DNA of 64,000 nucleotides from Hydrogenophilaceae bacterium (lineage in GTDB: Bacteria > Pseudomonadota > Gammaproteobacteria > Burkholderiales > Thiobacillaceae). The stretch covers positions 62,001 through 126,000 of the forward strand of contig JANJWO010000036.1 in NCBI GenBank assembly GCA_024709485.1, given 5' to 3'. Positions 40,091 to 55,245 of the stretch are shown piece by piece. A program made the position numbers and the translations under genes. The notes under the pieces were generated by a model, which did not search any database, was not told where the DNA came from, and was given only the letters and a program-made list of their open reading frames with translations. Every line of letters starts with the position of its first letter. Within the stretch, counting starts at the first letter, position 1.

Positions 40091-41899
40091 ATGGGCGGCT
40101 TCGGCACCACGCAGTTGGAAAACTGCATTGCGCGTCATCAGGCCGCCATCCCCGCCCTGGCCGGGATCGGCCGGCAACTGCAAGGCGGCACCGACCCGCT
40201 CGCCCTCTACGAGCCGTGCTACCCCCTGCTGGAACAGGCCATGTGGTCCGGCGCGGCGGATTTCCATGCGCTGCTGGCCGACTACCAGGCCCTGTTCCGC
40301 GAGCAGGAAGCGCTGATCGCGCAACGCGGCAACGACGAGCGCCACCGCTTCATCCTCGGCATCCCCATCGCCGACCGCCCGCCGCACCTGCGCGCCTGCC
40401 TGGAAAGCATTCTTCAGGTCTGCCGGCGCTACGACTACGGCGGCAAGCGCCATGGCGTGTGGGACAAGATCGAGGTCGTGGTCGCCGAGGACAGCCGCCT
40501 GGAGGCCAACATCCGCCGCGACCTCGAGCTGGTGGCGGAATACCGGCAGCAAGGCCTGCGCGTCCATCACTTCGGTCTGGACGAGCAGTACGAATTGCTG
40601 CACGCGCTGCCCGCCGGCACGCGCGAACGCCTGGGCCGCCTGCTCACCACGCAGACACGGGACAAGTTCTACCTCAAGGGCCAGGCCGCCAATCGCAACC
40701 TCGCCTACCTCAAGTTCCTGCAGCTCACCGAAGACAAGGATCGCACGCTGTATTTCCTGGTCGACAGCGACCAGCGCCTGTGCGTGAACCGGCAAACGGA
40801 ATCCGGCGACGAGGCGGTGTATGCGCTGAACTACTTCCATTACGCGGACAAGATTTTCCGCAACAGCGACACCCTCATGCTCACTGGCAAGATGGTGGGC
40901 AACCCGCCGGTGTCGCCCTCGGTGATGGCCGCCAATTTCCTCAACGACGTCAGCACCTTCTTCACCCGCATGAGCCAGCTGGGCAAAAGCCGGCCCTGCC
41001 AATTCCACGGTGCGCAGCAAAAGCCGGGCGACGCCGCCTATCACGACCTCGCCGGACTATTTGGTTATGAACACCAGCAGGCCGCGTTCGATTACGCCTG
41101 CCGGCTTGAAGGCGACCACGACCATGCCGCCTGTTTGCGTGACTTCGCCAGCCGCCTCAACGCCTTTTTCTTCGGCGAGCACCTCACACGCCGGACCTGG
41201 TTCGAGTATGGAAAAGGGTTCGGCCAGCTCAGCCCGGCGCGCACCGTCTACCCCGGCAACTACATCGTCAATTACGCGGGGCTCAAATACGTCATCCCCT
41301 TCGGCCACCTGCGCCTGCGGATGTCCGGCCCCACCGCCGGCCGGCTGATCGCCGCCGAGATCGGGCCGCGCTTCGCCTCGTTCAACATGCCCAACCTGCA
41401 CCGGCGCACCACCGAAGCGGGACTGGAAGACGACTTCCGCCCCGGCGTGGAAGTGGGGCGGGAACAGATCGACCTCGCCAACGAATTCGAGCGCCAGTTC
41501 TTCGGCGACCTCATGCTGTTTTCCACCGAAGAACTGGTGAAGCGCGCAGACGTGAACCGGCCTTTTTCCCACGAGGCGGTCGAGGCCGTGCTGGATGAGA
41601 AAGAAGCCGAGCTGTTAGCGCTGTACCGGCAAAAGCACGCAGCCATCGCGCAGAAGAACCGGCAGTTGAATGAACGGGTGTTCGAGTCCGGCCACTGGTG
41701 GCTGGACGTGCCGGAACTAAAGGAAGCACTGGCGCAGGTGCGCGCCTTCATCGACAACATCGAGCGCAACTTCGGCGAACACGCTCCGGCCTGGCAAGAG
41801 ATTCAGTCCAGCGCGCACCGCGCCCGGCGCAAACGGCAGATCGCCGAGGCCTTGATGAACTACCGGGCCGAGCGCGACGCCTGGGACAGCCTCTTTTAA
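40091..41899 (+). CDS. Glycosyltransferase-like protein of unknown specificity
   Basis: This 602-residue protein begins three bases after the ThDP enzyme. The centre looks like a GT-A fold: HRFILGIPIADRPPHLRACL opens a Rossmann-like sheet, WDKIEVVVAEDSRLEANI follows, and RTLYFLVDSDQRLCVNRQ has the D-x-D metal and sugar-nucleotide site. The C-terminal 200 residues are helical, with charged coiled-coil-like segments (EKEAELLALYRQKHAAIAQK). I do not recognise a named family. Coupling with the ThDP enzyme suggests a shared product. Confidence 0.6.
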   Translation: MGGFGTTQLENCIARHQAAIPALAGIGRQLQGGTDPLALYEPCYPLLEQAMWSGAADFHALLADYQALFREQEALIAQRGNDERHRFILGIPIADRPPHLRACLESILQVCRRYDYGGKRHGVWDKIEVVVAEDSRLEANIRRDLELVAEYRQQGLRVHHFGLDEQYELLHALPAGTRERLGRLLTTQTRDKFYLKGQAANRNLAYLKFLQLTEDKDRTLYFLVDSDQRLCVNRQTESGDEAVYALNYFHYADKIFRNSDTLMLTGKMVGNPPVSPSVMAANFLNDVSTFFTRMSQLGKSRPCQFHGAQQKPGDAAYHDLAGLFGYEHQQAAFDYACRLEGDHDHAACLRDFASRLNAFFFGEHLTRRTWFEYGKGFGQLSPARTVYPGNYIVNYAGLKYVIPFGHLRLRMSGPTAGRLIAAEIGPRFASFNMPNLHRRTTEAGLEDDFRPGVEVGREQIDLANEFERQFFGDLMLFSTEELVKRADVNRPFSHEAVEAVLDEKEAELLALYRQKHAAIAQKNRQLNERVFESGHWWLDVPELKEALAQVRAFIDNIERNFGEHAPAWQEIQSSAHRARRKRQIAEALMNYRAERDAWDSLF

Positions 41900-41909
41900 T
41901 TCAGCTGCG

Positions 41910-42662
41910 CTAATCAATCTGTAGCGAATCCGCCGCCCGCTCGATGATCTGCTCGCGGCATTCCCGGTAAGCCTCGCCTGCCTCGACCAGCACATTGTCC
42001 GGCACGATGACATGCGCGTAATCGCTCCCGGCCCTGTCGATATTGCCGCGATGAATGCGCGGCGATGAATCGCCCTTCAAGGGCTTGCCGGTGTGGCTGA
42101 AGGTTCGATACTGCTCGCGCAAGGGCAAATCCAGTTCCAGCCACTTGGTGAGCCTGGGCAGCAGCAACTCCGGCGCGCGCTGCCACAACTCGGCATCGAA
42201 ATAGAAATAGCCGGGGTTGGCTTTCGCGAAATCGGCCAGCGCTCTCACCCGCTCGATGTAGTAGCGCGCCGCCTTCTCGGGCGAATCGAACAGGTCACCG
42301 CCATCTTTTTGCCGATACAAATGCACGATGCTCTGGATGGTGGGTTCAGGCTGCCGCAGCGAGACCAGGATTTTCATGTCCGCCAGGCCCAGCTTGGCAG
42401 GCGCCAAGGCATAGTCGTTGTGCAGCAGCTTGTCGAACAGATAGCGGCTGCCCGGCTTGAGCGCATCGCTTTCCAGATAAGCAGCCAGCTGACGATCCAG
42501 CGCAGCGGCATCCGCATAGCTGAGGTGCATTTCGTAATAACCGCTGATCTGCGGGTGCGAGCCGAGAATATGCCCGGCCAGGCTGGTAAACGCCCGCATG
42601 TGGCTGAGCAGGAAAATTCTGAAGTAATGCTCAGGGAAAGCGTTGGTGGAATCGGGCTGCAT
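41910..42662 (-). CDS. Sulfotransferase-like protein
   Basis: This 250-residue protein has RIFLLSHMRAFTSLAGHILG followed by SHPQISGYYEMHLSYA. This aligns with the PAPS-binding loop region of sulfotransferases (usual LLSYPRSGSTLL...HP.I.GY.E), although the loop itself is degenerate (HMRAFTSL). The segment MKILVSLRQPEPTIQSIVHL matches the 3'-phosphate-binding region. It converges on the glycosyltransferase-like gene with ten bases between. Activity is uncertain because of the altered loop. Confidence 0.65.
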   Translation of the reverse strand: MQPDSTNAFPEHYFRIFLLSHMRAFTSLAGHILGSHPQISGYYEMHLSYADAAALDRQLAAYLESDALKPGSRYLFDKLLHNDYALAPAKLGLADMKILVSLRQPEPTIQSIVHLYRQKDGGDLFDSPEKAARYYIERVRALADFAKANPGYFYFDAELWQRAPELLLPRLTKWLELDLPLREQYRTFSHTGKPLKGDSSPRIHRGNIDRAGSDYAHVIVPDNVLVEAGEAYRECREQIIERAADSLQID

Positions 42663-42990
42663 TGTTCAACCAGGTTAGATGGGCAAGGCTGAAAACCTTG
42701 GTCAAATAATAAGCCATCCTTTTAGGCCAAAAGACATATTCTTGCGCCATCTTTTTGTGCATTACTATGCTAGATAAAAAACGATCCTGACCGCTTTAAA
42801 TCGGGCGACGGGACATGGTGTCTGCTCTCAAAAGTTAGTTGATGCTGACCCCTTTAGTTACTGCGACACCAGGATGCCTGGAAACGGCTGCTCCCAAATT
42901 TGCAGTAATGTAATTACTGACTATAAGCCGGCTCCCCCAGAACTAATTGCGCAATGTACACGCTAGCCCAGTTTTGTCAGAATTGTATCA
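42663..42990. other. AT-richer gene-free stretch before the two-gene insert
   Basis: This 328-base region holds no convincing gene. Its base composition shifts to AT-rich in line with the following two genes. It contains agttagttgatgctgacccc near 42834-42853. This resembles the short end sequences I associate with REP-type transposase or IS remnants in environmental proteobacteria, but no transposase is present. No clear promoter or Shine-Dalgarno is seen before the ATG at 42991. Confidence 0.5.
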
Positions 42991-44949
42991 ATGACTCAGA
43001 GCCCTGATCAAAACATAGCCCTAGGTGCATTGGCGTGGAGGATTTGCGCAGATGAGAAGCGGGCGCCCGTGCTGCTTGACGATCCTGAACAACGGTCAGC
43101 TTTGCAGACTGCGCTCACCGATGGTCAGCTCATAGAGGACGATCATGGCATCCGATTTTCGGACGAGCATGCCATGGTGCTGGCGGCTACAGAATATTTA
43201 CTAAAGACAGAGGCTGAATACCTTCTAGCCTCACCTCGGGAATGCTTTGAGCGACTACACGAAATCTTCACCCATGAGATCGGAAAACAGCACCGTGTGA
43301 GCGGGTACGTGCTCGCTGAATTACACAATACCAAGCAGTTTGATGGCTTTGCCTGGGGACGACAGGCCATTGAAGCAGGCGTTGGCGTTTTCGACGTGCT
43401 GCATGTGATGGAAGGCGCTGTTCCACTCTTCAATGCGGCGTGTGCCCAGGATATCTATGATTTCTTTGCCGGGCATTATGAACGCGTGAAGAACGATTTG
43501 GCAGGCGGCATTCTCTACTTCAAGCTGCCGCCGTGGCTCGCCAGTTTTCCCAAGACTGCAAGAGAGCTGAAGCATATGCATGAAGCATCTCCCCAGGAAC
43601 GCAGTGCCAGCCTGTATGCATGTGCGCTCCATGGGTTGATTCTCCATGACTTTGATGAAGGGCTCGTGCTCGCACTTGAGGCTGCACGCAGCTCAATACC
43701 TATGGTCAGTGGGCCTGCATTGCATTTGCTAGGGTTGGTAGACTATGCCAATCCACCGCATTTCGAAGGGCTCGAACAAGTCATTGAACTTTGCGCAGAA
43801 ATCATTCGCACACCTGAACATGCTCAATTCGCGACTGCTGTCCGGACACTGGGCCGCCTTCTTCCTGTGGCAGAGACACGGATTTCCCCCCTATTGACCG
43901 AGGCGGCACAAACAGAGGCCCCAGAAGTGCTGTACGCGCTTTCTGAGACATTGTTTCACGTGCGGGAGACGCAGTACGATCGAGAATGGTTCTGGCCTTT
44001 GTTCCTACGTCTGGCTGCCGCGAAAACCGAGCACAAAGGCATCCTGGACAACATCGACATGGTGCTGATGGGCTGGATTTCCAATCCAGAGCGACAGGAT
44101 CGGGCCTTGGAGTTCTTGAATTCTTGGATTGCACATCAATCACGCGAAATCATACAAGATGCTGTGTTGGATAAGCTTTTCGATTCGACAATCCACCAGC
44201 TAGAGCAGCAGCCAGCGCTACTCAACCGTGCCGTTACGATGTGGCTGATCCACGACGATATCCGCTATCCGATGGTTGCCTACAAGGTGATTTCACGTTT
44301 GCGTGAGCCGATCGCAAAATCTTTGGCGTTGGATCCAATGATCATTGATACCCTTCAGCCGAACGAGATTCGGTTTCTGGTCAGGCGGATCCTCGGTTTC
44401 ATCGTGGGGGATGACGCCCAGATCGCCCTAGTTTTCTCCCTGGTTCGGACTCAAGATGCCAAGACGCGCACACTAAGTCTTGTAATGGAGGTACTTCGAG
44501 ACCACACAGGCTACGACTACCCTTACCAGACAATGGATTTCTTGGAGGAGCGTCAAGCTGTGGACAGCGATGAGGACATTAAGACGCTTTGCGGGGAAGT
44601 GGCCAGGGAGCTGAAGAACCATTTGGCCGCCTTGGATGGCCTTCCGTGGCTGAAGGAACTCGTACCCTCTTCTGCCAAAATACATCGCTTTGCCAAGGAA
44701 CGCAGGAAGCAGATGAGTAAGGCTTTCGACGAGGCGAGCAAGGACTCGATCTGGCGTCAATTGACCTCGCATGTGGTTCTGAAGGCAGGGCGCCGAACCT
44801 TTCAGGCTATCCAGGATCGTTACACTGAACCCATGGAGCTGAAGGGTATCTCCCACAGCGTGGCGTTACCTCGAAGCGAAATCTCCGACCCGGCGGGCTC
44901 TGCCCTCAAACGACACCTCTTTAAGGTAGCAACCAAGGACACGCCATGA
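42991..44949 (+). CDS. Unknown 652-residue helical protein, first gene of an acquired pair
   Basis: I do not recognise this protein. It is long and almost entirely helical in appearance, with HEAT-like helical pairs such as ALHGLILHDFDEGLVLALEA and YALSETLFHVRETQYDREWF. It has no signal peptide, membrane span, P-loop or obvious catalytic motif. The C-terminal 90 residues are basic (KIHRFAKERRKQMSKAFDEA). Base composition is clearly less GC-rich than the flanking genes. The stop overlaps the next start by four bases (ATGA), so the two are coupled. A scaffold or sensor role in a two-component system, possibly defensive, is inference only. Confidence 0.7.
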   Translation: MTQSPDQNIALGALAWRICADEKRAPVLLDDPEQRSALQTALTDGQLIEDDHGIRFSDEHAMVLAATEYLLKTEAEYLLASPRECFERLHEIFTHEIGKQHRVSGYVLAELHNTKQFDGFAWGRQAIEAGVGVFDVLHVMEGAVPLFNAACAQDIYDFFAGHYERVKNDLAGGILYFKLPPWLASFPKTARELKHMHEASPQERSASLYACALHGLILHDFDEGLVLALEAARSSIPMVSGPALHLLGLVDYANPPHFEGLEQVIELCAEIIRTPEHAQFATAVRTLGRLLPVAETRISPLLTEAAQTEAPEVLYALSETLFHVRETQYDREWFWPLFLRLAAAKTEHKGILDNIDMVLMGWISNPERQDRALEFLNSWIAHQSREIIQDAVLDKLFDSTIHQLEQQPALLNRAVTMWLIHDDIRYPMVAYKVISRLREPIAKSLALDPMIIDTLQPNEIRFLVRRILGFIVGDDAQIALVFSLVRTQDAKTRTLSLVMEVLRDHTGYDYPYQTMDFLEERQAVDSDEDIKTLCGEVARELKNHLAALDGLPWLKELVPSSAKIHRFAKERRKQMSKAFDEASKDSIWRQLTSHVVLKAGRRTFQAIQDRYTEPMELKGISHSVALPRSEISDPAGSALKRHLFKVATKDTP

Positions 44950-46706
44950 AGCTAGTCCTTGTCGAATATCTTAGGATGCTCAGGGAATCTGGCGAGTTTG
45001 ACATCCTCCTGCCAGATTTGCTGTTGGCGATGAATATCACCCCCATCAGTAAGCCACAGAAAGGCACACGGCAAGCAGGGGTCGATCTAGCCGCTGTCGG
45101 CCTAGACGACTTGGGCGTCAGGACATTGTGGTTATTCGTCCTCAAGCGAGGTGATCTCGGTCGGCGGGACTGGGACACTGGTCAGCAGGCTGTCAGGCAA
45201 TCGCTGGATGAGATCAAAGACGTTTACCTTCGCAGCAATGTGGCACCCGAACATCTCACACTCCCAGTTCGGATCGTGGTTGCGACGACGGGTGATTTCA
45301 AGCAGGACTTCGAGCAGCAGCGTGCGGGCTACGCTGCCTCCAACACCACACCCAGTCTTAGTTACGCTTTCTGGAATGGCGACTCCATCGCCACAAAGAT
45401 GGAAGAGTACCTTCTTAATGAATATGCTCTTCCAGAGGCTGCAAGGTCGGAATTGCGTAGGGCGCTTGCCCTAGTGGGAGAGCCTGATTATGAACTCGGG
45501 CACTTCTATACACTGCTCAAGATACTCCTCGACTGGGTCAAGGAAGGGGAAAAGAAGAAAGAAAAGCCGGAAAAGGAATGCTTGCGAGACATCCGCACGG
45601 TCAGCCTAGCGCTAGGAATACTCTGCCGCTGGGCTGCGCAGGACGGCAATTTGAAAAGTGCCATGATCGCTTGCGAGCGGTCACTTCTATGGACTTGGAA
45701 CGCGTTACGTCAGCGAGGTCTTACCCAGGACCAAAACATGGTAGCCGCCTATACGCGACTCATTGCTATCTACCTCAACACAACCACCGAGTACTTCAAT
45801 AGAGTTCAGGCTCACCTACATACACAGGATGCATTCGCGCGCTATCACAGAGAGTCCGCACTTCTCACTGAGCGCGTGTTTGAGGAGATCGGCCTCCTCG
45901 CCACAATGGGGCTAGCACACTACCTGTGGGGTGTCGCCACCAAGAATAAAGAACGCATAGAGGGTGCAAAGGTTGTGGCAGAAGGCTTGGTGTCTCTCCT
46001 TCATACCCACGGTGTAACCAGATCCCCTTGCTACGATGGGCAATCCATCGAAATCGCTCTCGCGCTGTCGTTTTTCTTCCTTTCCGAGGAGATTGATGAG
46101 ATCAAGGCCTGGCTCCGGGAATTGGTAGGCCGAATGGTATTTGGATTCCGGAAAGGCCAGTGGTTTCCTATTTCGACCGACTCCTTCGACGATCTGGTCG
46201 ATCTGGAGCTTGGAAACGCTGATTTCGCGAAACTGACTGAGACGTCGTGGATGGTGCCTTTGATCGGTGAGTGGATGGCCGTGCTTAATGACGATGAAGG
46301 TTATTCTCGGTTGGTGAGTTTGAATGAAACACTCAAGGACACCACCTTTCAGGTTTGGTATCCGGACGACAAGACGGCGGAGGTTCTGTATGCCGGTCCC
46401 GCGCTTGAAACTGGCATTACGGAAGCACCCATAGTACTGCCCCCGACTGCTGAAGAAATGCGTGCCAGAATTTTGAAGATTCGTACGGAATCTCCAGCGA
46501 AATCACAGTTAGTCACGTCAGCCAAGCAGGCAGGGATAGGATGGTTAGACTTCATCGCTAGTCGTCACTTCCGTACGCCGCCTGACCCGGCTTTTTGGCA
46601 GTCCCTGGAGAAGGGGGCTCAGGCAGCCAGCCAAACTAACGTCGTTTCCGACCGCTCAGGAGCCGTGAGCGGACACACCAGCCTAGCTGGGCCGAAGTCG
46701 GCTTAG
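44946..46706 (+). CDS. Unknown 586-residue protein with N-terminal nuclease-like domain
   Basis: The first 150 residues resemble a restriction-endonuclease-like (PD-(D/E)XK) fold. There is an early acidic helix (ESGEFDILLPDLL), then KGTRQAGVDLAAVG with Asp47, then LWLFVLKRGD with Lys67. The usual acid two before the Lys is Val, so the motif is degenerate. YAFWNGDSIATKMEEYLL follows as in similar domains. The remaining 430 residues are helical and TPR-like. The gene is coupled to the preceding 652-residue gene and shares its AT-richer composition. The domain call is tentative. Confidence 0.65.
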   Translation: MKLVLVEYLRMLRESGEFDILLPDLLLAMNITPISKPQKGTRQAGVDLAAVGLDDLGVRTLWLFVLKRGDLGRRDWDTGQQAVRQSLDEIKDVYLRSNVAPEHLTLPVRIVVATTGDFKQDFEQQRAGYAASNTTPSLSYAFWNGDSIATKMEEYLLNEYALPEAARSELRRALALVGEPDYELGHFYTLLKILLDWVKEGEKKKEKPEKECLRDIRTVSLALGILCRWAAQDGNLKSAMIACERSLLWTWNALRQRGLTQDQNMVAAYTRLIAIYLNTTTEYFNRVQAHLHTQDAFARYHRESALLTERVFEEIGLLATMGLAHYLWGVATKNKERIEGAKVVAEGLVSLLHTHGVTRSPCYDGQSIEIALALSFFFLSEEIDEIKAWLRELVGRMVFGFRKGQWFPISTDSFDDLVDLELGNADFAKLTETSWMVPLIGEWMAVLNDDEGYSRLVSLNETLKDTTFQVWYPDDKTAEVLYAGPALETGITEAPIVLPPTAEEMRARILKIRTESPAKSQLVTSAKQAGIGWLDFIASRHFRTPPDPAFWQSLEKGAQAASQTNVVSDRSGAVSGHTSLAGPKSA

Positions 46707-46862
46707 GCCGAGAAGCGGACCTCATCATTTGCGAGGCTGAATGCCGGCTTCGGGTCGCTTCCAGACATACTCCGCCCACACCAAAACCCTTGAAGCCGGC
46801 CATTACTACACCCTGTCCGCTCTAGCTGGCACGACCCAGCGCGGCCTCGGCTCGAAAACCAA

Positions 46863-47150
46863 CTACGGCTGCAGGTTGTAAACCTCAAAAGCCGTTTCCT
46901 GCGGAGGGCCGGCGAATCCGCCCGGCACGCCTGCTTGAAGCTTGGGCAGCAGGACATTGTCGCGGAAGTTTTCCCAGTTCTCCTTGGATTCGTGGATGGC
47001 CACAATGGTCCATCCGCCGGCAGAGGGGCCGGCGGCGTGATAAATCTGCCCTTTCGGCAATTCCTTGCGGCTGGGATGCACGGCCCCCAGTGACGCTTCG
47101 TACTGTTCCCTGGTGCCGTTGGCGAAAAAATGAACGATGCCGTATGCCAT
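46863..47150 (-). CDS. Small alpha/beta-barrel-like protein
   Basis: This 95-residue protein begins AYGIVHFFANGTREQYEASL and continues with GWTIVAIHESKENWENFRDN. This is a beta-alpha-beta-beta pattern reminiscent of dimeric alpha/beta-barrel (ABM/EthD-like) proteins. No catalytic residues can be pointed to. It is monocistronic or paired with the SnoaL-like gene upstream on the same strand, 169 bases away. A longer open frame across it is a shadow. The function is unknown. Confidence 0.65.
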   Translation of the reverse strand: MAYGIVHFFANGTREQYEASLGAVHPSRKELPKGQIYHAAGPSAGGWTIVAIHESKENWENFRDNVLLPKLQAGVPGGFAGPPQETAFEVYNLQP

Positions 47151-47319
47151 GGCGGTCTCCTATTGGCCGTCAATGATTTTGGTTGCCAGGATTGGCCAGG
47201 CAGCCTGGGCCATGCAGACAGCCGCACGCCGTCTTCCGATGGCCCGTGTCCTGGCCGGGCGGGCGAAGCCGCGATTCAAACCGGCGACAGCGGCTTGGTG
47301 CTCTCGCGCAGGCAAGCGC

Positions 47320-47772
47320 CTAGTGCGCCCGCTCCGGGCTGGCAAATGCGTAGGGGCGCGCAACATGGATAAGCCAGTGCCCGCCCTTCTTCTTCATCAG
47401 GCCGGCGATGTGGACCTTCATCTGCGGCATTGCCGCGCCATTTCGATCGAGCGCGTGGTCGATGGTCATCTCGCCGTCGAACCAGGCCAGGTCGCGGGTC
47501 AGCGGTTTCGATGTCAGGCTCAGTATCCTGGCGTGCGAATCCCGGAAAGTCGTGGCCTGCTCGTCGGCCAGGATTTTTTCGATCTCGGCCTTGCCGCTGG
47601 CGGCGCGGCCCACCGGGTTGATGAGCGACGCGTCTTCGTCCCAGTACGAGAGCATTTCATTCACGTTGTGCTTGTTCCACGCTGCGAAGAATTCATCGAA
47701 GGTGTGCAGCATTGCCGCGGTGTCGCCCGAAGCTTTGGCACGGTGTGCCGTGGGGGAAACAGTTGTATGCAT
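47320..47772 (-). CDS. SnoaL/DUF4440-like NTF2-fold protein
   Basis: This 150-residue protein has the pattern of the SgcJ/EcaC-type NTF2 superfamily: FDEFFAAWNKHNVNEMLSYW, then EDASLINPVGRAASGKAEIE, ending in GLMKKKGGHWLIHVARPYAF. Such proteins are small dimeric cone-shaped domains that bind or turn over small molecules; function varies. It has no signal peptide. The neighbours do not suggest a substrate. Confidence 0.7.
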   Translation of the reverse strand: MHTTVSPTAHRAKASGDTAAMLHTFDEFFAAWNKHNVNEMLSYWDEDASLINPVGRAASGKAEIEKILADEQATTFRDSHARILSLTSKPLTRDLAWFDGEMTIDHALDRNGAAMPQMKVHIAGLMKKKGGHWLIHVARPYAFASPERAH

Positions 47773-48212
47773 TTCAGTACCTCATCCATCAGAGTTGAAA
47801 AACCCGCTTTTGGCCTCTCCCCGATACCTCTATGCATAGATGAAGTTGGCGCAGTTGAATTAAGAAATACTTATGGCGGTTTGCCGGGCATGGCGGCAAG
47901 CAAAAATCACGGAGCGGGGAAATGCACGAGCTTGCCTCGGGCGCGCCATCCGGATGACAATCCGCCGAGGGCCATAAGCGCGCATCGTGTTGCGCTCACG
48001 GCTGCCCCGCCGGCCCGCGCGAGCGGGCGGGCAAAACCACGCCCCCTCTGCGGCAGGGAGCAGCGGCCCCCTTCGGCGGCGTGCGAAAAAACCGGAACTT
48101 TTTTTGCACTGGCCCGTTTAATGCTGAGCGGAAGAGGTTTTATCACCCCCAGGCACTAGCCAGACGTGGGAAGGTTTGCCCAGAACAGGGCCTTAAATGA
48201 GCAGCGTGCCGG
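47773..48212. other. Gene-free regulatory stretch upstream of the sigma-factor operon
   Basis: This 440-base region holds no supported gene. It contains the divergent upstream region of the SnoaL-like gene, a GC-rich patch with the small inverted repeat GCCCGC-gcga-GCGGGC around 48014-48030, and the ECF-type promoter at 48094-48121. The leader from that promoter to the sigma-factor start is about 90 bases. Confidence 0.6.
48094..48121 (+). promoter_or_regulatory. ECF-sigma-type promoter before the sigma-factor gene
   Basis: GGAAC (48094-48098), a 16-base spacer and CGTTTAA (48115-48121) form a -35/-10 pair of the type used by ECF sigma factors. It is preceded by CGAAAAAACC and followed by a T-run in the spacer. 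The same arrangement with identical spacing is found before the porin-sox genes at 49893-49920. Confidence 0.78.
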
Positions 48213-48785
48213 ATGAATCATAGCGAATCTTGCTGCAACTGGATGCAGTTGCAGGATCACGAGTGCGTCGCGCTGTTCCAGGACGGTGAGCAGGATGTTT
48301 TTGCGGAACTGGTGCGCCGTTACCAGAACCGCATTTTCCGTTTCCTCCTGCGCATGACGGGTTGTCGCGAAGACGCCCTGGAGCTGACCCAGGACACGAT
48401 GATGAAGGCGCTTCGTGCGCTTTCCAGTTGGCGGCCGGACACCGCTTTTTCCACCTGGCTGTTCCGCATCGCCAACAATACCGCCACCGACCGGCTGCGG
48501 CGCAAGAAGGTGGTCAAGTACATCCCGCTGGACGAGCACATGGATTTTCCCGATCCGGCGGCGGGGCCGGAAGAGGCGCTGCAATCCGCGCAACGCACCC
48601 GCATCCTCGACGCGGCGTTGCAGCGGCTGCAGAAAGACTACCGTGAGGTGCTGCTGCTGCGGGAAATCGAGGAAATGTCGTATGCCGAGATCGGCGAAGT
48701 GCTCGGATTGCGCGAGGGGACGGTCAAATCCCGCATCGCGCGGGCAAGACAGGCTCTCCTGGATGTCTGTAGAGGCAGGCTCTGA
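48213..48785 (+). CDS. ECF-family RNA polymerase sigma factor
   Basis: This 190-residue protein has region 2 (FAELVRRYQNRIFRFLLRMT, then ELTQDTMMKALRALSSWRPD and AFSTWLFRIANNTATDRLRR). Region 4 follows (LQKDYREVLLLREIEEMSYA, then IGEVLGLREGTVKSRIARAR), with no region 3, which defines an ECF sigma factor. It directs polymerase to GGAAC-type promoters, and one lies just upstream, suggesting autoregulation. An alternative ATG at 48243 would give a shorter but complete protein. Downstream are an anti-sigma gene and a sensor gene. Confidence 0.93.
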   Translation: MNHSESCCNWMQLQDHECVALFQDGEQDVFAELVRRYQNRIFRFLLRMTGCREDALELTQDTMMKALRALSSWRPDTAFSTWLFRIANNTATDRLRRKKVVKYIPLDEHMDFPDPAAGPEEALQSAQRTRILDAALQRLQKDYREVLLLREIEEMSYAEIGEVLGLREGTVKSRIARARQALLDVCRGRL

Positions 48786-48824
48786 AGCCGATCACACGGA
48801 ATTTGAAAATCGAGAGGTAGCGAT

Positions 48825-49274
48825 ATGAATAGGCACTGTAGCAGTAACGAGGCGTTGTCCGCCTACCTGGACGGTGAACTGGGCGGGAATCGCCGCGCGG
48901 AATTCGAGAGACACTTGGCGGCTTGCGCCCTCTGCCAGGAGGCACTGCATAATTTTCAGTGTCTGCGGGCGTGCTTCCAGTCCCTGCCGCACCAGGAAAT
49001 AGGCTACGACCTGGCCCCCGCGCTGCTGGCCGGGGCGAAGCCCAGGACCGCACCGACCTGGCGGCACCGCTGCAGCCTGTGGCAATTGCTGCCGACCTCC
49101 TTCGCGGCCGCAGCCACGATTTCGCTGGGCATCTTCCTGGGAACCAGCCTGGTCGGCACGCCCGATGCCGGCGCGGCGACCCCGCCCCCGTCCCTGGCCA
49201 TGTTCGACCTTCTCCCGCCAGGCAGCGTATGCGTTGGCTCCTTTGCGGGCTGCTACCCGGAGGGAAAAATCTGA
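48825..49274 (+). CDS. Zinc-finger anti-sigma factor, membrane-anchored
   Basis: This 149-residue protein has an N-terminal zf-HC2 anti-sigma domain with the signature RHLAACALCQEAL (H-x3-C-x2-C), preceded by LSAYLDGELGGNRRAEFERH. One membrane span follows at about residues 90-110 (TSFAAAATISLGIFLGTSLV), with a short periplasmic tail containing two Cys. It should hold the sigma factor at the membrane. Its stop overlaps the next start by one base. Confidence 0.88.
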   Translation: MNRHCSSNEALSAYLDGELGGNRRAEFERHLAACALCQEALHNFQCLRACFQSLPHQEIGYDLAPALLAGAKPRTAPTWRHRCSLWQLLPTSFAAAATISLGIFLGTSLVGTPDAGAATPPPSLAMFDLLPPGSVCVGSFAGCYPEGKI

Positions 49275-49744
49275 TGAAACGTCATTGGCTCTATCTACTC
49301 CTGACCCTTTCCCTCCTCCTCAACGTGGGCGTGCTCGGCGCCGTGGGCTACCGGACGTGGCAAAACGGCAACGTCTCCGGCGCGCAGGGCGAGGCCAAGC
49401 CCGACCAGCTGGCGCAGCGCCTCAATCTCAGCGAGGAACAGCGCCGGCAATGGCGGCAGAAAGAGGAAAGATTCCTGCGGGAAATGCAGGTCGACTGGGA
49501 ACAAGTCCGCCTCCACCGCGAAAACATGATCCGCCAGATCTTCTCGCCGCAACCGGACATGGCGGCGATCGAAACCGCGCGTGCGGCAATTTGCCGCATC
49601 CAGGAAAAACAGCAGCGCCATGTCATTGCGCAGCTGATGGAAGAGCAGCGCATGCTCGATGCGCAACAGCGGGAGACCCTCGCCGGGCTGCTGATCCAGC
49701 AAAGGCCCGCCGGCTCGCTCGAAGAGCACCTGCACCGCCACTGA
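49274..49744 (+). CDS. Periplasmic metal/stress sensor of the CnrX/ZraP (Metal_resist) type
   Basis: This 156-residue protein has an N-terminal anchor (WLYLLLTLSLLLNVGVLGAV) and a helical periplasmic domain with QRLNLSEEQRRQWRQKEERF and a Gln/Glu-rich antiparallel helix pair. This is typical of the CnrX, NccX and ZraP/CpxP group. In the Cnr system the sensor, anti-sigma and sigma proteins form one regulatory unit; here sigma, anti-sigma and sensor genes are consecutive and coupled. The metal or redox signal is unknown; the C-terminus EEHLHRH offers His ligands. Confidence 0.78.
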   Translation: MKRHWLYLLLTLSLLLNVGVLGAVGYRTWQNGNVSGAQGEAKPDQLAQRLNLSEEQRRQWRQKEERFLREMQVDWEQVRLHRENMIRQIFSPQPDMAAIETARAAICRIQEKQQRHVIAQLMEEQRMLDAQQRETLAGLLIQQRPAGSLEEHLHRH

Positions 49745-49892
49745 GCCCCGGGGTGCGCGCCACGCTCCGCCGTGGCGCCCGTGCCCGTCTCCCCGCCGTC
49801 CCACCGCACGCAACCGTCGCCGATTTGCGCTTGCGCAAACGGTCATCGGCTTCCGCGACACCGCAAAAATTTTTCGCTTCCCGAAAAAAACC

Positions 49893-49920
49893 GGAACATT
49901 TTTCCCGCTCCTCCGTTTAA
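49893..49920 (+). promoter_or_regulatory. ECF-sigma-type promoter before the porin-sox operon
   Basis: GGAAC (49893-49897), a 16-base spacer and CGTTTAA (49914-49920) repeat the promoter found before the sigma-factor gene, including the upstream CGAAAAAA-ACC context and a T-rich spacer start. The leader to the porin ATG is about 100 bases. The remainder of the 277-base gap holds no gene. Confidence 0.8.
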
Positions 49921-50021
49921 GCAGTTGAAGAGCTTGATGTCTTCTGATCCGCCGTAACCTCCCTCGCGCGTGGCGGCGACATCAGTGTCTTCTTCGCCAA
50001 CAACTATATGAGGAGAACGGA

Positions 50022-51515
50022 ATGTCTACCAACAAGCTGAGCCTTGCCGCGGCCTGCGCCGCGGTCGGGCTTACGGCCGCGGGTTCAAGCCAGGCCGCCA
50101 ACTGGGTGATGATGTACGGAACCGAGCCCGCCACCAGCACACACCGCCTGCTCGGGGCGGTGCAGCTTAGCTACGAAAACAACTTCGGCTGCACCGAGCC
50201 GGACGGCCTGAAGGGCGCCGCGGCCGTCAACAACGGCGGGGTGGTGAACAACTGCCGCGTCGGGCCGGAGCTGAGGGACAGCGAAAGCGGTCTTTACCTG
50301 CAAAACCTGATGCTGGGCGCGCGCGGCAACCTGATCCCCGAGCGCATCAACTACTTCATTGCCGCCAACGCCGGCGAGAACGTCGCCAACTACAAGCCCT
50401 ACAAGACCGACCGCGAACACCTCGCGAGCGTGACCGACGCCAGCCTCTCCTTCCACTACATCCCCGGCGTGCGGGTGCGCGCGGGCCTGCTGCGCAAGCC
50501 CGGTCCGGAGGAGCTGTACCAGGGGCTGGAAGCGACCGACTACGTCTTCCTCACCGATTTCACGCAGCGGGTGCAGATCGAGCGCTTCATCAAGGGCAAC
50601 GCCAAGAGCACCAACGCGATCCCCGGCCAGGGCTATGGCTACCAGGGCACCTTGAACGGCAAGGGCATAGGCAGCGGCGTGGGCGACATCACCGGCAACG
50701 TGTCCACATACGGCTACGACGCCGACGCCGGGCGCGACTGGGGCATCCAGCTCTTCGACGCGTTCAAGCGCGACAAGTGGACCCACACCTACTCGGTGAT
50801 GTTCGGCAACGGCAACGGCATCCACCATTCCGACAACAACAGCGAGAAGGACCTCAACCTCTACTGGTCGTCCGAGTACGACCTGCCCGGCGGCCAGGGG
50901 CCGCTCAAGCACGGCATCAAGCTCTACGGCTATCACCAGCAGGGCGTGCGCAACTTCATCATCGACGCCGACGGCACCAAAAGCCGGGATTTCGACAGGA
51001 TCCGCTACGGCATCGGCGCCAAGGCGATCGGCTACCTGTTCGGCGAGGAGCGCGGCAAGCATCGCCTGGCGTTCGAGTTGATGTTCGCCGAAGGCATGAT
51101 CAACTACACCCCCACCGCCAACATGGCGGAGGCCACCTACGGCGGCCTCGTCCAGTTCGCGGCCGAACGCGACAACAAGGCCAAGGGCATGAGCTTCGAC
51201 TACGGCTACTACCTCGACAAGCACTGGCAGTTCGACGCCCGCTACTCGCGCAACGACCTGCTTTACGAGCAGGCCGACACCGCCTACTGGACCGATTCCG
51301 ACTACCGCGTCCTGGAATACCTCACCCTGGGGGTGAACTACCACTTCACGCCCAAGGCCCGGCTCACCTTCAACTACGAGTTCCGCCATGCCGAAGCGCA
51401 GAACCCCGTGCGCAACACGAACGGCACCGTCAACACCAACGCCACCATCAATGCCAACCAGATCACCGGCTCGGTGGGCGATCGCGTCGGCCTGAGGCTC
51501 ACGTACAGCTTCTAG
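50022..51515 (+). CDS. Outer-membrane porin-like protein
   Basis: This 497-residue protein has a signal peptide (cleavage near SSQAAN) and alternating amphipathic beta strands. It ends in Phe (LRLTYSF), the usual signal for beta-barrel assembly in the outer membrane. Segments such as YWSSEYDLPGGQGPLKHGIK and SFDYGYYLDKHWQFDARYSR fit a phosphate/short-chain-anion type barrel, but I cannot name the family. A GGAGAACGG ribosome-binding site precedes it. Being first after the ECF promoter and directly before soxX, it may admit sulfur anions or hold a cytochrome; both are inference. Confidence 0.7.
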   Translation: MSTNKLSLAAACAAVGLTAAGSSQAANWVMMYGTEPATSTHRLLGAVQLSYENNFGCTEPDGLKGAAAVNNGGVVNNCRVGPELRDSESGLYLQNLMLGARGNLIPERINYFIAANAGENVANYKPYKTDREHLASVTDASLSFHYIPGVRVRAGLLRKPGPEELYQGLEATDYVFLTDFTQRVQIERFIKGNAKSTNAIPGQGYGYQGTLNGKGIGSGVGDITGNVSTYGYDADAGRDWGIQLFDAFKRDKWTHTYSVMFGNGNGIHHSDNNSEKDLNLYWSSEYDLPGGQGPLKHGIKLYGYHQQGVRNFIIDADGTKSRDFDRIRYGIGAKAIGYLFGEERGKHRLAFELMFAEGMINYTPTANMAEATYGGLVQFAAERDNKAKGMSFDYGYYLDKHWQFDARYSRNDLLYEQADTAYWTDSDYRVLEYLTLGVNYHFTPKARLTFNYEFRHAEAQNPVRNTNGTVNTNATINANQITGSVGDRVGLRLTYSF

Positions 51516-51549
51516 CCCCATGCACGAACTCACGGAAAGAGGAATGTTC

Positions 51550-52026
51550 ATGAAATCGATTTTTGAAAAAGGCCGGGCCGTTGCGCTGCTGCTCGCGGCG
51601 GCCGCGCTCGCCGGTTGCGCAGGCCAGCAAGCCGCGGGCCCGGCAAAAGCATCGGATTTTTCGGAGTGGCCCTGCCTGAGCAGTTCCCTGCCGTGCGGCA
51701 AGCTCGCCACCCGCAAGCCGGTCCAGCAGGCGCTCGCCGGCCCGCTCAACGGCGACCCGGCCCGCGGCAAGGCGCTTGCCAACGAGCGCAGCAAGGGCAA
51801 CTGCGTCGCCTGCCACCTGCTGCAGGGCGCGGAACAGCCCGGCTCCAAGGGCCCGGACCTGCGCAGCTACGGCAGCTGGGCCAGAAGCGACGCGGAAACC
51901 TACGCCCTGGTTTACGACATGCGCTCGCGCAACCCGGACACCGTCATGCCGCCGGCCGGGACCAACCAAATCTTGACTGATCAGGAGCTGCGCGATGTGG
52001 TCGCCTTCCTGCAGTCCTCGAAGTAA
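51550..52026 (+). CDS. soxX: Cytochrome c SoxX, lipoprotein form
   Basis: SoxX pairs with SoxA to join thiosulfate oxidatively to SoxY. The heme site is NCVACH (Cys85, Cys88, His89) and the distal ligand Met133 is in DTVMPPAG. The ATG at 51550 is chosen because AGAGGA lies six bases upstream. It gives a lipoprotein signal with lipobox LAGC (Cys23), so this SoxX is probably membrane-anchored. The family segment WPCLSSSLPCGKLATRKP with two Cys precedes the heme domain. The length is 158 residues. Confidence 0.85.
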   Translation: MKSIFEKGRAVALLLAAAALAGCAGQQAAGPAKASDFSEWPCLSSSLPCGKLATRKPVQQALAGPLNGDPARGKALANERSKGNCVACHLLQGAEQPGSKGPDLRSYGSWARSDAETYALVYDMRSRNPDTVMPPAGTNQILTDQELRDVVAFLQSSK

Positions 52027-52039
52027 AGGAGCCCGGACT

Positions 52040-52963
52040 ATGGCTGAAAAACATTTCTCACTGAGCGCGCTTGCCCTGGTGGCACTCGTCGTGACAGCGA
52101 ACGGCCAGGCGGCCGATGCCGAGGCATACCGGGAATTCTATCCGCACGTTGCCATCGACCCGGCGCGGGGAGTCGCCGGCGGCGCCGACGCCGAATTCGG
52201 CGCCACCCTGCAATACTGGCAGGACGAGCAGGCGCTCGAGCAAAACAAGGGCTTCATCGGTCAGGTGGACCAGGAGTGGAAGCTCAACTGGAAATTCATG
52301 GATCTCGATCGCTCCGACGACATGCACCCGGGATACCTGGCGCTGGAGAAGGCAGAAAAGCTTTTCAAATTCTGGGTCAAGCGCGAGCCTGAATTCCGCG
52401 CCTGCCTCGGCGAGGGCAAAACCGACCTCACCGGCCTGGCCGCTGGCTATCCCAAGTACGACCCCAAGCTGAAGAAGATCATGACGGTCGAAAGCCGCGT
52501 GGAGCACTGCGCCCAGACCGCCTTGTGGGAGAACTTCAGGCAGGGCACGCCGGAAAACAATCTGATCTCGCTTTATTTCAAGTCGCTTTCCGCCACGGCG
52601 CCGATCAAGGTGGACACGAATTCCCCCGAAATCATGGCGTCCTACAAGCGCGGCGAGAAGCTGTTCTACACCAAGGTCGGCCAGTACAACTTCTCCTGCG
52701 CCTCCTGCCACACGTCGAGCGGCCTGCTCGGCCAGCGCTTCCGCGGCCAGGTGCCGACCTCGCCGTTCGCGGACGCGGCCCACTTCCCCACCTATCGCAT
52801 GAACCTCGGCGACATCGAATCGCTGCAGCAGCGCTTCATGCGCTGCAACCTGCAGGCGCGCACCAAGGGGCTGCCGCCCGGCAATCCGGATTACACCGAT
52901 CTCGAAGTGTTCTACACCGTGCTTTCCAACGGCTATCCGGTTTCCGTGCCTTCCGCACGGTGA
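52040..52963 (+). CDS. soxA: Sulfur-oxidation cytochrome SoxA, monoheme
   Basis: SoxA (307 residues) is the catalytic diheme or monoheme cytochrome of SoxAX. It has a signal peptide and one heme site CASCH (Cys220, Cys223, His224). The active-site Cys269 in RFMRCNLQARTKGL is the persulfide heme ligand. The N-terminal domain keeps Cys122 and Cys157 but lacks a CXXCH, as in monoheme SoxA, where they form a disulfide. The ATG at 52040 begins 13 bases after the soxX stop. Confidence 0.92.
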   Translation: MAEKHFSLSALALVALVVTANGQAADAEAYREFYPHVAIDPARGVAGGADAEFGATLQYWQDEQALEQNKGFIGQVDQEWKLNWKFMDLDRSDDMHPGYLALEKAEKLFKFWVKREPEFRACLGEGKTDLTGLAAGYPKYDPKLKKIMTVESRVEHCAQTALWENFRQGTPENNLISLYFKSLSATAPIKVDTNSPEIMASYKRGEKLFYTKVGQYNFSCASCHTSSGLLGQRFRGQVPTSPFADAAHFPTYRMNLGDIESLQQRFMRCNLQARTKGLPPGNPDYTDLEVFYTVLSNGYPVSVPSAR

Positions 52964-52994
52964 CCTTTTGTCACAACGTCAAACGGAGAATGGT

Positions 52995-53489
52995 ATGAAA
53001 GTAGCAAATGAAATCAACCAAGCGCGCAGGGCCCTGCTGAAGGGCGGGTGCACCGCGGGCGTGCTCGCCCTCGCCGCATCCGCCGGCCTGCTCACGCCGG
53101 GCCGCGTCCTGGCCGCGCCGTGGAACAAGGGCGCCTTTGAAGCCAAGAGCATCCCCGATGCGCTCAAGGGCCTGGGCGCCGGCGGCAGCGCCGCCACCAG
53201 CGCGGACATCGCGATCAAGGCCCCCGACATCGCCGAAAACGGCGCCGTGGTCCCGGTCGAGGTCACCAGCCAGATTGCCGACACCCAGGCGATCATCATC
53301 CTTTCGGAGAAGAACCCGCTGCCGCTGCTGGCAAATTTCGACTTCACCGAGGGAAGCGCACAGGGCTACGTCTCCACCCGCATCAAGCTGGGACAGACCT
53401 CGCAGGTGCGCGTGGTCGTCAAGGCCGGCGGCAAATACTACAGCGCGGCCAAGGAAATCAAAGTCACCATCGGCGGCTGCGGCGGCTGA
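52995..53489 (+). CDS. soxY: Sulfur carrier protein SoxY
   Basis: SoxY carries the growing sulfur chain on the Cys of its C-terminal swinging arm. The 164-residue precursor ends GGCGG (Cys162), the diagnostic SoxY end. The N-terminus INQARRALLKGGCTAGVLAL has a twin-arginine export signal. The beta-sandwich core ADIAIKAPDIAENGAVVPVE is typical. The ATG at 52995 follows GGAG by six bases. It works with SoxZ, encoded 46 bases downstream. Confidence 0.93.
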   Translation: MKVANEINQARRALLKGGCTAGVLALAASAGLLTPGRVLAAPWNKGAFEAKSIPDALKGLGAGGSAATSADIAIKAPDIAENGAVVPVEVTSQIADTQAIIILSEKNPLPLLANFDFTEGSAQGYVSTRIKLGQTSQVRVVVKAGGKYYSAAKEIKVTIGGCGG

Positions 53490-53535
53490 ACCTCTTTTTG
53501 ATCGAATTTTTGCATTTCTAAGGAAAGGAACGAAC

Positions 53536-53850
53536 ATGGCAGAACCGATGAAAGTCCGCGCGAAGCTCGCCGGAGACGTGCTGGACGTCAAGATCCTGAT
53601 CAGCCACACGATGGAGACCGGCCAGCGCAAGGATGCGAAAAGCGGCCAGGTGGTGCCCGCCCATTTCATCCAGAACGTCACCGTCGACCTGAACGGCAAG
53701 ACGGCGGTTGCGGCGCAATGGGGCGCGGCGATCTCGAAGGATCCCTTCCTCGGCCTGAAACTGAAGGGCGCCAAGGCCGGCGACACCGTGACGGTGAACT
53801 GGGAAGACAACAAGGGCGGAAAGGGTAGTGGCGCGACCACAATTACCTGA
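53536..53850 (+). CDS. soxZ: SoxYZ complex protein SoxZ
   Basis: SoxZ is the 104-residue partner of SoxY in the periplasmic sulfur-carrier complex; it has no signal peptide and is exported with SoxY. The N-terminus MKVRAKLAGDVLDVKILISH and the central AHFIQNVTVDLNGKTAV match the family. The ATG follows an AAGGAA by a few bases. It directly follows soxY. Confidence 0.93.
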   Translation: MAEPMKVRAKLAGDVLDVKILISHTMETGQRKDAKSGQVVPAHFIQNVTVDLNGKTAVAAQWGAAISKDPFLGLKLKGAKAGDTVTVNWEDNKGGKGSGATTIT

Positions 53851-53864
53851 GCGTTTTCCGGCAG

Positions 53865-53892
53865 CCCCGGCGCGCAAGCATGGCGCGCGGGG
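53865..53892 (+). terminator. GC-rich hairpin after soxZ
   Basis: CCCCGGCGCGC and GGCGCGCGGGG form a ten-pair stem with a bulged G and a seven-base loop, 14 bases after the soxZ stop. There is no following T-run, so it may be an RNA-stabilising or processing hairpin between soxZ and the cytochrome gene rather than a true terminator. Confidence 0.4.
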
Positions 53893-53943
53893 CGCATGCC
53901 GCCGGACGCGTTGGCAAACAATCATCAATTTCGGAGTAGATTC

Positions 53944-54411
53944 ATGAAGGTAAATTTCAAGGCGGTGTGTCTCGGTCTGGCGATGGGCCTGGCCACGGCA
54001 GGAGCAGTGGCCGACATCGGCAAGGACGATCGGCTCGATGTGGTACTGGAACCCGATGAGCGGCATCTCGTGCTGTTCGAGATGCGCAGCTTCCTCCAGG
54101 CCCTCCAGGGCATAACCGAGGCGCTGACGCGGGAGGACATGCAGACCGTGGCCAACCTGGCGCGCACCATGGGCAGCGGAGCCGCAAACCAAATTCCGCC
54201 CCAAACCACGGCCAAGCTGCCGGAAACCTTCCAGATGCTGGCCGGCACCGTGCACACGACCTTCGACGTCATCGCCCTCGACGCGGAAAGCCTGGGGGAC
54301 CCCCTGCATACCATCCGGCAGGTGAGCACGATGATGCAGACCTGCAATGCCTGCCACGGCATCTATCAGGTCAAGGTCGGCAGCGAACCCTTCCCGCGTC
54401 TGAAGCAGTAA
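53944..54411 (+). CDS. Cytochrome c'-type periplasmic protein
   Basis: This 155-residue protein has a signal peptide (CLGLAMGLATAGAVA) and is helical. A single heme-binding CNACH (Cys134, Cys137, His138) lies near the C-terminus, the layout of four-helix-bundle cytochromes c'. It lies 93 bases after soxZ on the same strand. It could accept electrons from SoxAX or bind nitric oxide or sulfide; the sequence does not decide. The ATG at 53944 follows GGAG by six bases. Confidence 0.75.
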   Translation: MKVNFKAVCLGLAMGLATAGAVADIGKDDRLDVVLEPDERHLVLFEMRSFLQALQGITEALTREDMQTVANLARTMGSGAANQIPPQTTAKLPETFQMLAGTVHTTFDVIALDAESLGDPLHTIRQVSTMMQTCNACHGIYQVKVGSEPFPRLKQ

Positions 54412-54661
54412 GCTCATGAAGCCGGAGCCGACGAGCTTCATGCTTCCGGAAAGGCGCCGCCCATCGCGGGAGCCGCCCTTCCGGAGCAAACCAGATTGCA
54501 TGGCGGGCGCCGCCATCGAAGCATCGCACGCGTCCAGCGCCGCGCCCGAACCGGAACCTTCCAGGCTGCCCACGGTCAGCCTGGACAAGCCCCCGGCCAG
54601 CGCCGGGGCCAAACCGGCCGCCAAAAATGGCCAGAACACAAACCCACAACGGAATGAAAAA

Positions 54662-55144: not shown

Positions 55145-55160
55145 ATCGCCCGCTTCCCCG

Positions 55161-55197
55161 CGCTTGCGGCAGGCCGGAATCCGGCCTGCCGCAAGCG
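55161..55197. terminator. Perfect 17-bp inverted repeat between convergent genes
   Basis: The arms are CGCTTGCGGCAGGCCGG and CCGGCCTGCCGCAAGCG, with a three-base AAT loop. It lies between the stop of the plus-strand exported protein and the stop of the minus-strand aminopeptidase and so can act in both directions. There is no strong T-run on either side. Confidence 0.7.
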
Positions 55198-55245
55198 CCG
55201 CGCGGCCACCCGGCCCCGCGGCACGCTGAGGCCATCAGCGGCGCA

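What the first reader, a model, noticed from the sequence alone, without database searches (positions are those of the whole stretch)
42991..46706. Candidate undescribed two-gene system: 652-residue helical protein plus 586-residue nuclease-like protein
Two long, translationally coupled genes (ATGA overlap) with clearly lower GC content sit between a surface-glycan cluster and house-keeping-type genes. Neither matches a family I know. The second protein opens with a PD-(D/E)XK-like pattern (GVDL near 45-48, FVLK with Lys67) and has a TPR-like remainder; the first is a HEAT-like helical protein. A helical sensor coupled to an effector nuclease is a common design for anti-phage systems. The nuclease motif is degenerate, so this stays a hypothesis.
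Basis: partly seen in the sequence, partly recalled or inferred. Interest (0 to 1): 0.72.

Follow-up and report, generated by a model that had tools for sequence, protein, structure and literature searches.

The report
Olokun anti-phage gene pair
The two genes are a copy of Olokun, an already described two-gene bacterial defence system against viruses, and comparing its relatives gives a clear clue that the second protein is a DNA-cutting enzyme with an unusual active site.

Summary
In detail: two coupled genes, 652 and 586 residues, ATGA overlap, G+C 0.54 in 0.65 surroundings. They are not undescribed. PADLOC identifies them as OloA (E 1.5e-90) and OloB (6.3e-166), the Olokun anti-phage system. 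Relatives lie in 13 phyla, on plasmids and beside defence genes. Here the pair fills a slot that is empty in one congener and holds a PIN gene or a toxin-antitoxin pair in two others. OloB residues 1-161 model as a PD-(D/E)XK nuclease (FokI Z 10.5, MspJI Z 9.3), and their profile aligns with Mrr nucleases, Asp47 and Lys67 on the catalytic Asp and Lys. OloA is a HEAT-type solenoid. One thing is odd: the second catalytic residue (D/E/Q-x-K) is Ser, Thr, Val or Ala in 64 of 64 OloB proteins, while Asp47 and Lys67 never vary. A short-OloA form keeps only OloA's C-terminal half. Interest is modest.

The parts
42991..44949 (+). oloA, 652 aa: N-terminal extension, HEAT-type helical solenoid, small C-terminal domain with short strands
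   Evidence: PADLOC PDLC03925 OloA E 1.5e-90, residues 79-650; AlphaFold2 mean pLDDT 83.8, pTM 0.76
44946..46706 (+). oloB, 586 aa: PD-(D/E)XK-type nuclease domain plus helical remainder
   Evidence: PADLOC PDLC03926 OloB E 6.3e-166, residues 1-554; AlphaFold2 mean pLDDT 88.8, pTM 0.86
44946..45428 (+). OloB residues 1-161, alpha-beta-beta-beta-alpha-beta nuclease core
   Evidence: VIA-align Z 10.5 FokI, 9.5 AF1548, 9.3 MspJI; HHalign to a Mrr_cat profile
45084..45086 (+). codon of Asp47 (GVD)
   Evidence: invariant in 21 of 21 and 64 of 64
45144..45146 (+). codon of Lys67 (FVLK)
   Evidence: invariant in 21 of 21 and 64 of 64
42991..43230 (+). OloA residues 1-80: N-terminal part outside the PADLOC match; predicted helix-helix-hairpin-helix at low to moderate confidence
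   Evidence: PADLOC match starts at residue 79; alignment A2; model blocks pLDDT 54-80; no Pfam match for residues 1-100
44946..44949 (+). ATGA overlap of stop and start codons
   Evidence: sequence; a 4-base overlap in 69 of 87 related loci
42757..46775 (.). cargo slot filled by oloAB; in the congener G856 the same slot holds 2.1 kb with a PIN-domain gene
   Evidence: blastn: window 42189-42756 and 46776-47202 match G856 C82 1-582 and 2665-3090
46740..46840 (-). probable degenerate remnant of the 3' end of an M17 aminopeptidase gene; intact copy at 55249-56700. Seen through the G856 sequence, which matches both; the two window stretches do not match each other directly by blastn
   Evidence: PF00883 on the intact copy
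41910..42662 (-). left flank, sulfotransferase-like gene, present in congeners
   Evidence: PF13469 E 1.5e-5, just below its cut-off; matches in congeners

Best explanation
The pair is an Olokun (OloAB) anti-phage system in a small horizontally exchanged cargo slot. OloB is the effector. Its first 161 residues form a PD-(D/E)XK nuclease of the Mrr/FokI/MspJI kind, with Asp47 and Lys67 as catalytic residues; the acid or Gln normally two residues before the Lys is replaced by Ser/Thr/Val, and an invariant acid of the first helices (Asp19, which aligns with a Glu of the Mrr first helix, or Glu17) probably takes its place. The helical rest of OloB and the C-terminal half of OloA form the interface, and the OloA HEAT solenoid senses infection or holds the nuclease off until then. 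Shown here: family identity, gene coupling, predicted folds, invariant residues, exchange of the slot's content. Inferred: catalysis, complex formation, sensing, and whether phage or host nucleic acid is the target.
For: PADLOC matches over nearly full length. The ORF directly upstream of OloB is OloA in 85 of 87 related loci, 69 of them with the 4-base overlap (the test HMM was built from alignment A2, which holds 37 of these OloA proteins, so the count is partly circular; PADLOC's own models hit the further proteins tried). Nuclease core: Z 10.5 to FokI residues 400-563, rmsd 3.8, 145 aligned. HHalign of OloB 1-165 with 15 Mrr_cat domains: probability 87.8, score 40.0, 111 columns; in a gap-trimmed rerun probability 56.0, score 31.4, 53 columns, against at most 19.5 in 100 column-shuffled profiles, 16.3 for the rest of OloB and 13.9 for OloA. 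Asp47 and Lys67 invariant in 64 of 64; 24 of the 44 columns conserved at 95% or more lie in residues 1-100. In the short-OloA clade the partner of OloB keeps only the OloA C-terminal half, which points to that half as the contact. Context elsewhere: 105 neighbour ORFs of 12 loci match 91 PADLOC models at E 1e-10, against 0 for 38 other ORFs of this window (overlapping models, and not a matched control).
Against: No D, E or Q at the second catalytic position in 64 of 64, so OloB could be a dead nuclease. Pfam finds no nuclease family in any of 64 OloB proteins at E 0.1. Foldseek showed no nuclease among its top 50 rows and nothing at E 0.001 or better. The stricter HHalign run is only at probability 56. 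The window's own surroundings hold no other PADLOC match at 1e-10. No activity data.
Confidence: 0.62

Rival explanations
1. OloB is a degenerate, non-cleaving PD-(D/E)XK domain that only binds DNA or RNA; OloAB blocks the phage by binding or by recruiting another factor.
For: The usual D/E/Q before x-K is missing in 64 of 64; no Pfam nuclease match.
Against: Glu14, Glu17, Asp19, Asp47, Lys67 and Arg73 are invariant in 64 of 64 and in 21 of 21 found by another route; Gln81 is invariant in the first set and 90% or more in the second. A dead domain would be expected to lose at least some of them.
Confidence: 0.2
2. OloAB is a toxin-antitoxin pair: OloB is a nuclease toxin of host nucleic acid and OloA its direct antitoxin, released on infection (abortive infection).
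For: Two overlapping genes with the possible inhibitor first; congeners carry a ParE-type pair or a PIN gene in the same slot.
Against: Both proteins are far larger than usual for such pairs (recalled); no OloA ORF directly upstream in 2 of 87 loci (L047, and L097, which lies 404 bases from the locus edge), and OloA 210 or 304 bases away in two more.
Confidence: 0.13
3. A cellular DNA-repair or housekeeping pair unrelated to phage defence.
For: No other defence model matched in this window; some relatives sit among metabolic genes, such as the Rhizobium plasmid copy.
Against: Patchy, own genome counted in each: 4 of 369 class genomes, 9 of 398 phylum genomes, 4 of 117 family genomes; empty or swapped slot in congeners; in 34 plasmid records; defence-rich neighbourhoods.
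Confidence: 0.04

Closest known systems
Olokun system (OloA + OloB; source paper Millman et al. 2022, recalled, not held)
   Same: Both genes, their order, near full-length matches to the PADLOC models.
   Different: OloA has about 80 N-terminal residues outside the PADLOC model match. In the tree this OloB sits, next to two other Pseudomonadota (G651, G616), in a 13-row group (support 89) with cyanobacterial, Rubrobacter and Paenibacillus ones, apart from the other Pseudomonadota (midpoint root).
Mrr_cat-type PD-(D/E)XK nucleases (Mrr, MspJI nuclease domain)
   Same: Predicted fold of residues 1-161; profile alignment with Asp47 and Lys67 on the catalytic Asp and Lys.
   Different: The D/E/Q before x-K is S, T, V or A in 64 of 64; no Pfam match.
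FokI cleavage domain
   Same: Best structural match, Z 10.5, 145 residues.
   Different: 8% identity; FokI carries its own DNA-recognition part, whereas OloB has a helical remainder and a separate HEAT-type partner.

Membership tests
Olokun | OloA protein | tested here: met
   PADLOC PDLC03925, E 1.5e-90, 303 bits, residues 79-650 on profile 18-595 of 596
Olokun | OloB protein | tested here: met
   PADLOC PDLC03926, E 6.3e-166, 552 bits, residues 1-554 on profile 1-553 of 556
Olokun | adjacent genes, oloA before oloB, same strand | tested here: met
   for this copy; for relatives
Olokun | protection against phages | not testable with these tools
   needs plaque assays
Mrr_cat / PD-(D/E)XK nucleases | alpha-beta-beta-beta-alpha-beta core | tested here: met
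   AlphaFold2 secondary structure H2-15 H18-28 E31-35 E48-53 E59-67 H83-97 E108-114 H120-133 E138-143 (a prediction); FokI, AF1548, MspJI at Z 9.3-10.5
Mrr_cat / PD-(D/E)XK nucleases | catalytic Asp and Lys | tested here: met
   Asp47 and Lys67 aligned with the Mrr Asp and Lys, invariant in 64 of 64
Mrr_cat / PD-(D/E)XK nucleases | D, E or Q two residues before the Lys (motif as tabulated in PMC3874153, passages) | tested here: not met
   S 39, T 18, V 6, A 1 of 64
Mrr_cat / PD-(D/E)XK nucleases | match to the Pfam model at its cut-off | tested here: not met
   no nuclease family among the matches of 64 OloB proteins at E 0.1, none at all for the window protein at E 5
Mrr_cat / PD-(D/E)XK nucleases | nuclease activity | not testable with these tools
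   needs purified protein

The most novel reading that the evidence does not exclude
OloB is an active nuclease of a variant PD-(D/E)XK kind in which D...[S/T/V]-x-K plus an invariant acid from the first helices (Asp19 or Glu17) makes the metal site. Olokun comes in at least two architectures: the full one with a HEAT-type OloA, and a compact one in which a 300-residue OloA keeps only the C-terminal half. The HEAT part would then be a replaceable sensor and the C-terminal half the core that licenses the nuclease.
Probability: 0.4. Interest if true: 0.5.

Novelty: new member of a known kind. Interest (0 to 1): 0.3.

Why it matters
Olokun turns up in defence surveys, yet papers of which I saw passages call it not thoroughly characterised (PMC12592470) or list its mechanism as unknown (PMC12926258), and one table files it under nuclease activity, validated or predicted (PMC10855318). 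A specific catalytic pair (Asp47, Lys67), a deviating motif and a natural short-OloA form turn its mechanism into a direct mutagenesis test. The locus itself is one more example of a system that was already known.

Tried and rejected
Rejected: 'undescribed system' (PADLOC). NCBIfam and PHROGs gave nothing, and Pfam only matches below cut-off for OloA; the weak TraB/PrgY match (E 0.062) was discarded. Single-sequence scans of genome contigs and viral contigs found no relatives; the alignment-based scans did. PDB sequence search with the OloB profile gave only a methylphosphonate synthase at E 1.1, discarded. Foldseek on whole OloB showed no nuclease in its top 50; the nuclease matches came from the VIA second look. 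There, unrelated helical chains score 8-10.3 against residues 158-450, so nothing is claimed for that part. Foldseek against viral models put a phage 'restriction endonuclease' second at E 0.014, taken as weak support only. No tRNA in the window and no convincing terminal repeats around the pair, so no attachment site is claimed. A winged-helix or STAND-derived origin of the OloA N-terminal part was considered and not claimed (no Pfam match; low confidence).

Rows dropped before counts and other limits. The tree took 105 of 109 OloB proteins: L027 (broken by IS3) and L129, L067, L119 (taken as copies of L125, L031, L032 from contig lengths or equal coordinates) were left out; its OloA classes rest on ORF length. 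Alignment A3 holds the window protein and 63 of 87 loci; L111 was left out for a stop in the stretch as given, the other 23 by my own choice of a smaller set, without a computed rule. Alignment A2 holds the window protein and 37 loci. Alignment A1 used 21 of the 22 proteins (L027 left out). The neighbour scan used 105 of 146 ORFs, 12 of 17 picked loci out of 51 with full flanks, because of the residue limit; the first 25 of 91 families are shown, the answer does not say how many of the 105 ORFs match, several models (PD-T4-6, HerA) are variants of one protein, and the 38-ORF control comes from one other genome. The scan kept 80 of 157 relatives and used the single pattern ELD[AVI][LVI]LP[DE]LL, so invariance of Glu17, Asp19 and nearby residues in A3 is partly built in; alignment A1, found by HMM and tblastn without that pattern, also shows Glu17 and Asp19 in 21 of 21. 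Several of the 13 phyla rest on metagenome bins, which may be misassigned. The phylum count includes a 45-residue fragment (G584) and genomes already seen.
Full report
What is there. The window holds two overlapping genes at the stated place: 42991-44949 (652 aa) and 44946-46706 (586 aa), joined by ATGA. Their G+C is 0.535 and 0.538 against about 0.65 around them, and third-position G+C is 0.59-0.60 against 0.90-0.93 in two other genes.

What it is. PADLOC-DB recognises the first as OloA (E 1.5e-90) and the second as OloB (E 6.3e-166), both over nearly their whole length. This is the Olokun system. The source paper (Millman et al. 2022, recalled) is not held; PMC10121019 names Olokun among known defence systems, described in its reference 7 (passages seen).

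Spread. Counting the window's own genome, OloB is found in 4 of 369 genomes of the class, 9 of 398 of the phylum (one a 45-residue fragment) and 4 of 117 of the family (one a fragment with a stop). It is in 34 of 72,556 plasmid records and none of 50,697 phage records at E 1e-5. With an alignment as query, 157 relatives were found in genome contigs (80 kept) and 7 in viral contigs. The tree rows name 13 phyla, several through metagenome bins. In 85 of 87 loci the ORF directly upstream is OloA, 69 with the 4-base overlap (the test HMM was partly trained on them). Of 5426 complete E. coli genomes, 14 carry a relative of the Brenneria OloB at about 83% DNA identity and 2 carry the short form. The one standard copy inspected lies a few kilobases from tRNA-Thr, with an integrase remnant and insertion sequences in between. 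A Pantoea OloB query found none.

Mobility and context. In the congener G857 the matches to the two genes that border the slot, sulfotransferase-like and M17 aminopeptidase, end 92 bases apart. In G856 the slot, between the same left flank and a stretch matching window 46776-47202, holds 2.1 kb at 0.41 G+C with a PIN-domain gene. In G854 it holds a ribbon-helix-helix/ParE pair. In G858, G859 and G860 it holds other genes. Just right of OloB the window seems to keep a degenerate 3' end of an aminopeptidase gene, seen through G856, while the intact gene lies 8.5 kb further on. So OloAB behaves as cargo. The window's other 38 ORFs of 200 aa or more have no PADLOC match at 1e-10, whereas 105 ORFs next to 12 other OloAB loci match models of MADS, Mokosh, PD-T4-6, ShosTA, HerA, SIR2, PglW and others. 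Of the 11 plasmid loci looked at, 2 had no annotation; neighbours in the rest include NACHT, RES, AbiEii, TIR and SIR2 proteins and methyltransferases, but also metabolic, partition and conjugation genes. The E. coli short form lies near three-component ABC, CHAT, AAA and retron Ec67 genes.

OloB. AlphaFold2 with 64 sequences gives mean pLDDT 88.8 and pTM 0.86; residues 1-161 are alpha-beta-beta-beta-alpha-beta. VIA-align puts the FokI cleavage domain first (Z 10.5, rmsd 3.8, 145 residues), with AF1548 (9.5, 2.7, 109) fifth and MspJI (9.3, 3.7, 134) sixth, all on this domain. A profile comparison with 15 Mrr_cat domains from 12 genomes, the window's own among them, aligns 111 columns at probability 87.8. 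In it Asp47 falls on the Mrr Asp, Lys67 on the Mrr Lys, residue 65 on the Mrr Gln, and Asp19 on a Glu of the first helix. A gap-trimmed repeat is weaker (probability 56.0, 53 columns, score 31.4) but still well above 100 column-shuffled profiles (at most 19.5), the rest of OloB (16.3) and OloA (13.9). Asp47 and Lys67 are invariant in 64 of 64. The residue two before the Lys is Ser 39, Thr 18, Val 6, Ala 1, never D, E or Q; the Mrr motif tabulated in PMC3874153 is (D/E)..(D/E/Q)xK (passages). Glu14, Glu17 and Asp19 are also invariant and could supply the missing acid.

OloA. The profile matches HEAT-type structures (best E 4.6e-16, a synthetic fusion, followed by alphaRep designs and natural HEAT proteins). 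Twelve of 38 members hit Pfam HEAT_2 at E 0.1. The model (mean pLDDT 83.8) resembles PP2A-A, importins and similar solenoids (25 Foldseek rows at E 0.001 or better). The C-terminal tail is conserved and includes short strands. Four OloB proteins form one clade with support 100 whose partner is only 300-301 aa. The two partners scanned match OloA model positions 313-589 and 415-586 of 596. One of the four is on an IncFII Klebsiella plasmid and two are in genomes of the window's own family.

Mechanism. Most likely OloA senses or gates, and OloB cuts. Shown: identity, coupling, predicted folds, invariant residues, exchange of the slot's content. Inferred: activity, contact, trigger and target.

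Literature. Forty-one papers hold the word Olokun, most of them unrelated by title (40 listed). I saw passages in five (PMC12926258, PMC10121019, PMC12629846, PMC10855318, PMC12592470) and only listings of the others. None of those passages gives a mechanism. PMC10855318 lists Olokun in a table under nuclease activity, validated or predicted, citing its reference 7, so a nuclease reading is not new in itself. PMC12592470 says it has not been thoroughly characterised. PMC12926258 lists it as unknown. PMC12629846 reports it almost exclusively in one Pseudomonas island hotspot. I saw no mention of the S/T-x-K deviation or of the short OloA; these cover open-licence papers only.

Verdict. A correct and well-read observation of an already described system; a new member of a known kind, with a sharper mechanistic hypothesis.

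Noticed in passing
L018:9096-11674, L036:8231-10806, L038, L039; E. coli L156:10001-12579: Compact Olokun form: OloA of 300-301 aa (C-terminal half only in the two scanned) next to OloB; one clade with support 100, on a Klebsiella plasmid and in 2 of 5426 E. coli genomes.
   Followed up: partly
window 42757-46775 and congeners G854, G856, G857: The slot between a sulfotransferase-like gene and an M17 aminopeptidase is a small cargo hotspot in this genus (Olokun, PIN gene, toxin-antitoxin pair, other genes, or nothing).
   Followed up: yes
window 46740-55249: About 8.5 kb (SnoaL-like gene, sigma factor, cytochrome/sox-looking genes) separates a probable aminopeptidase 3' remnant from the intact gene at 55249-56700; perhaps a second insertion or rearrangement beside the Olokun slot.
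   Followed up: partly
window 40091-41899: 602-aa protein with no Pfam match at 0.001, in a stretch conserved at about 81-89% DNA identity in six congeners, next to a thiamine-pyrophosphate enzyme of the acetolactate-synthase type.
   Followed up: no
L027:5979-10976: On a Burkholderia plasmid the OloA part is split over small ORFs and OloB is interrupted by an IS3 element: a decaying copy.
   Followed up: no
window 55160-55198: Nearly perfect 39-base palindrome (97% to its own reverse complement) downstream of the aminopeptidase gene.
   Followed up: no
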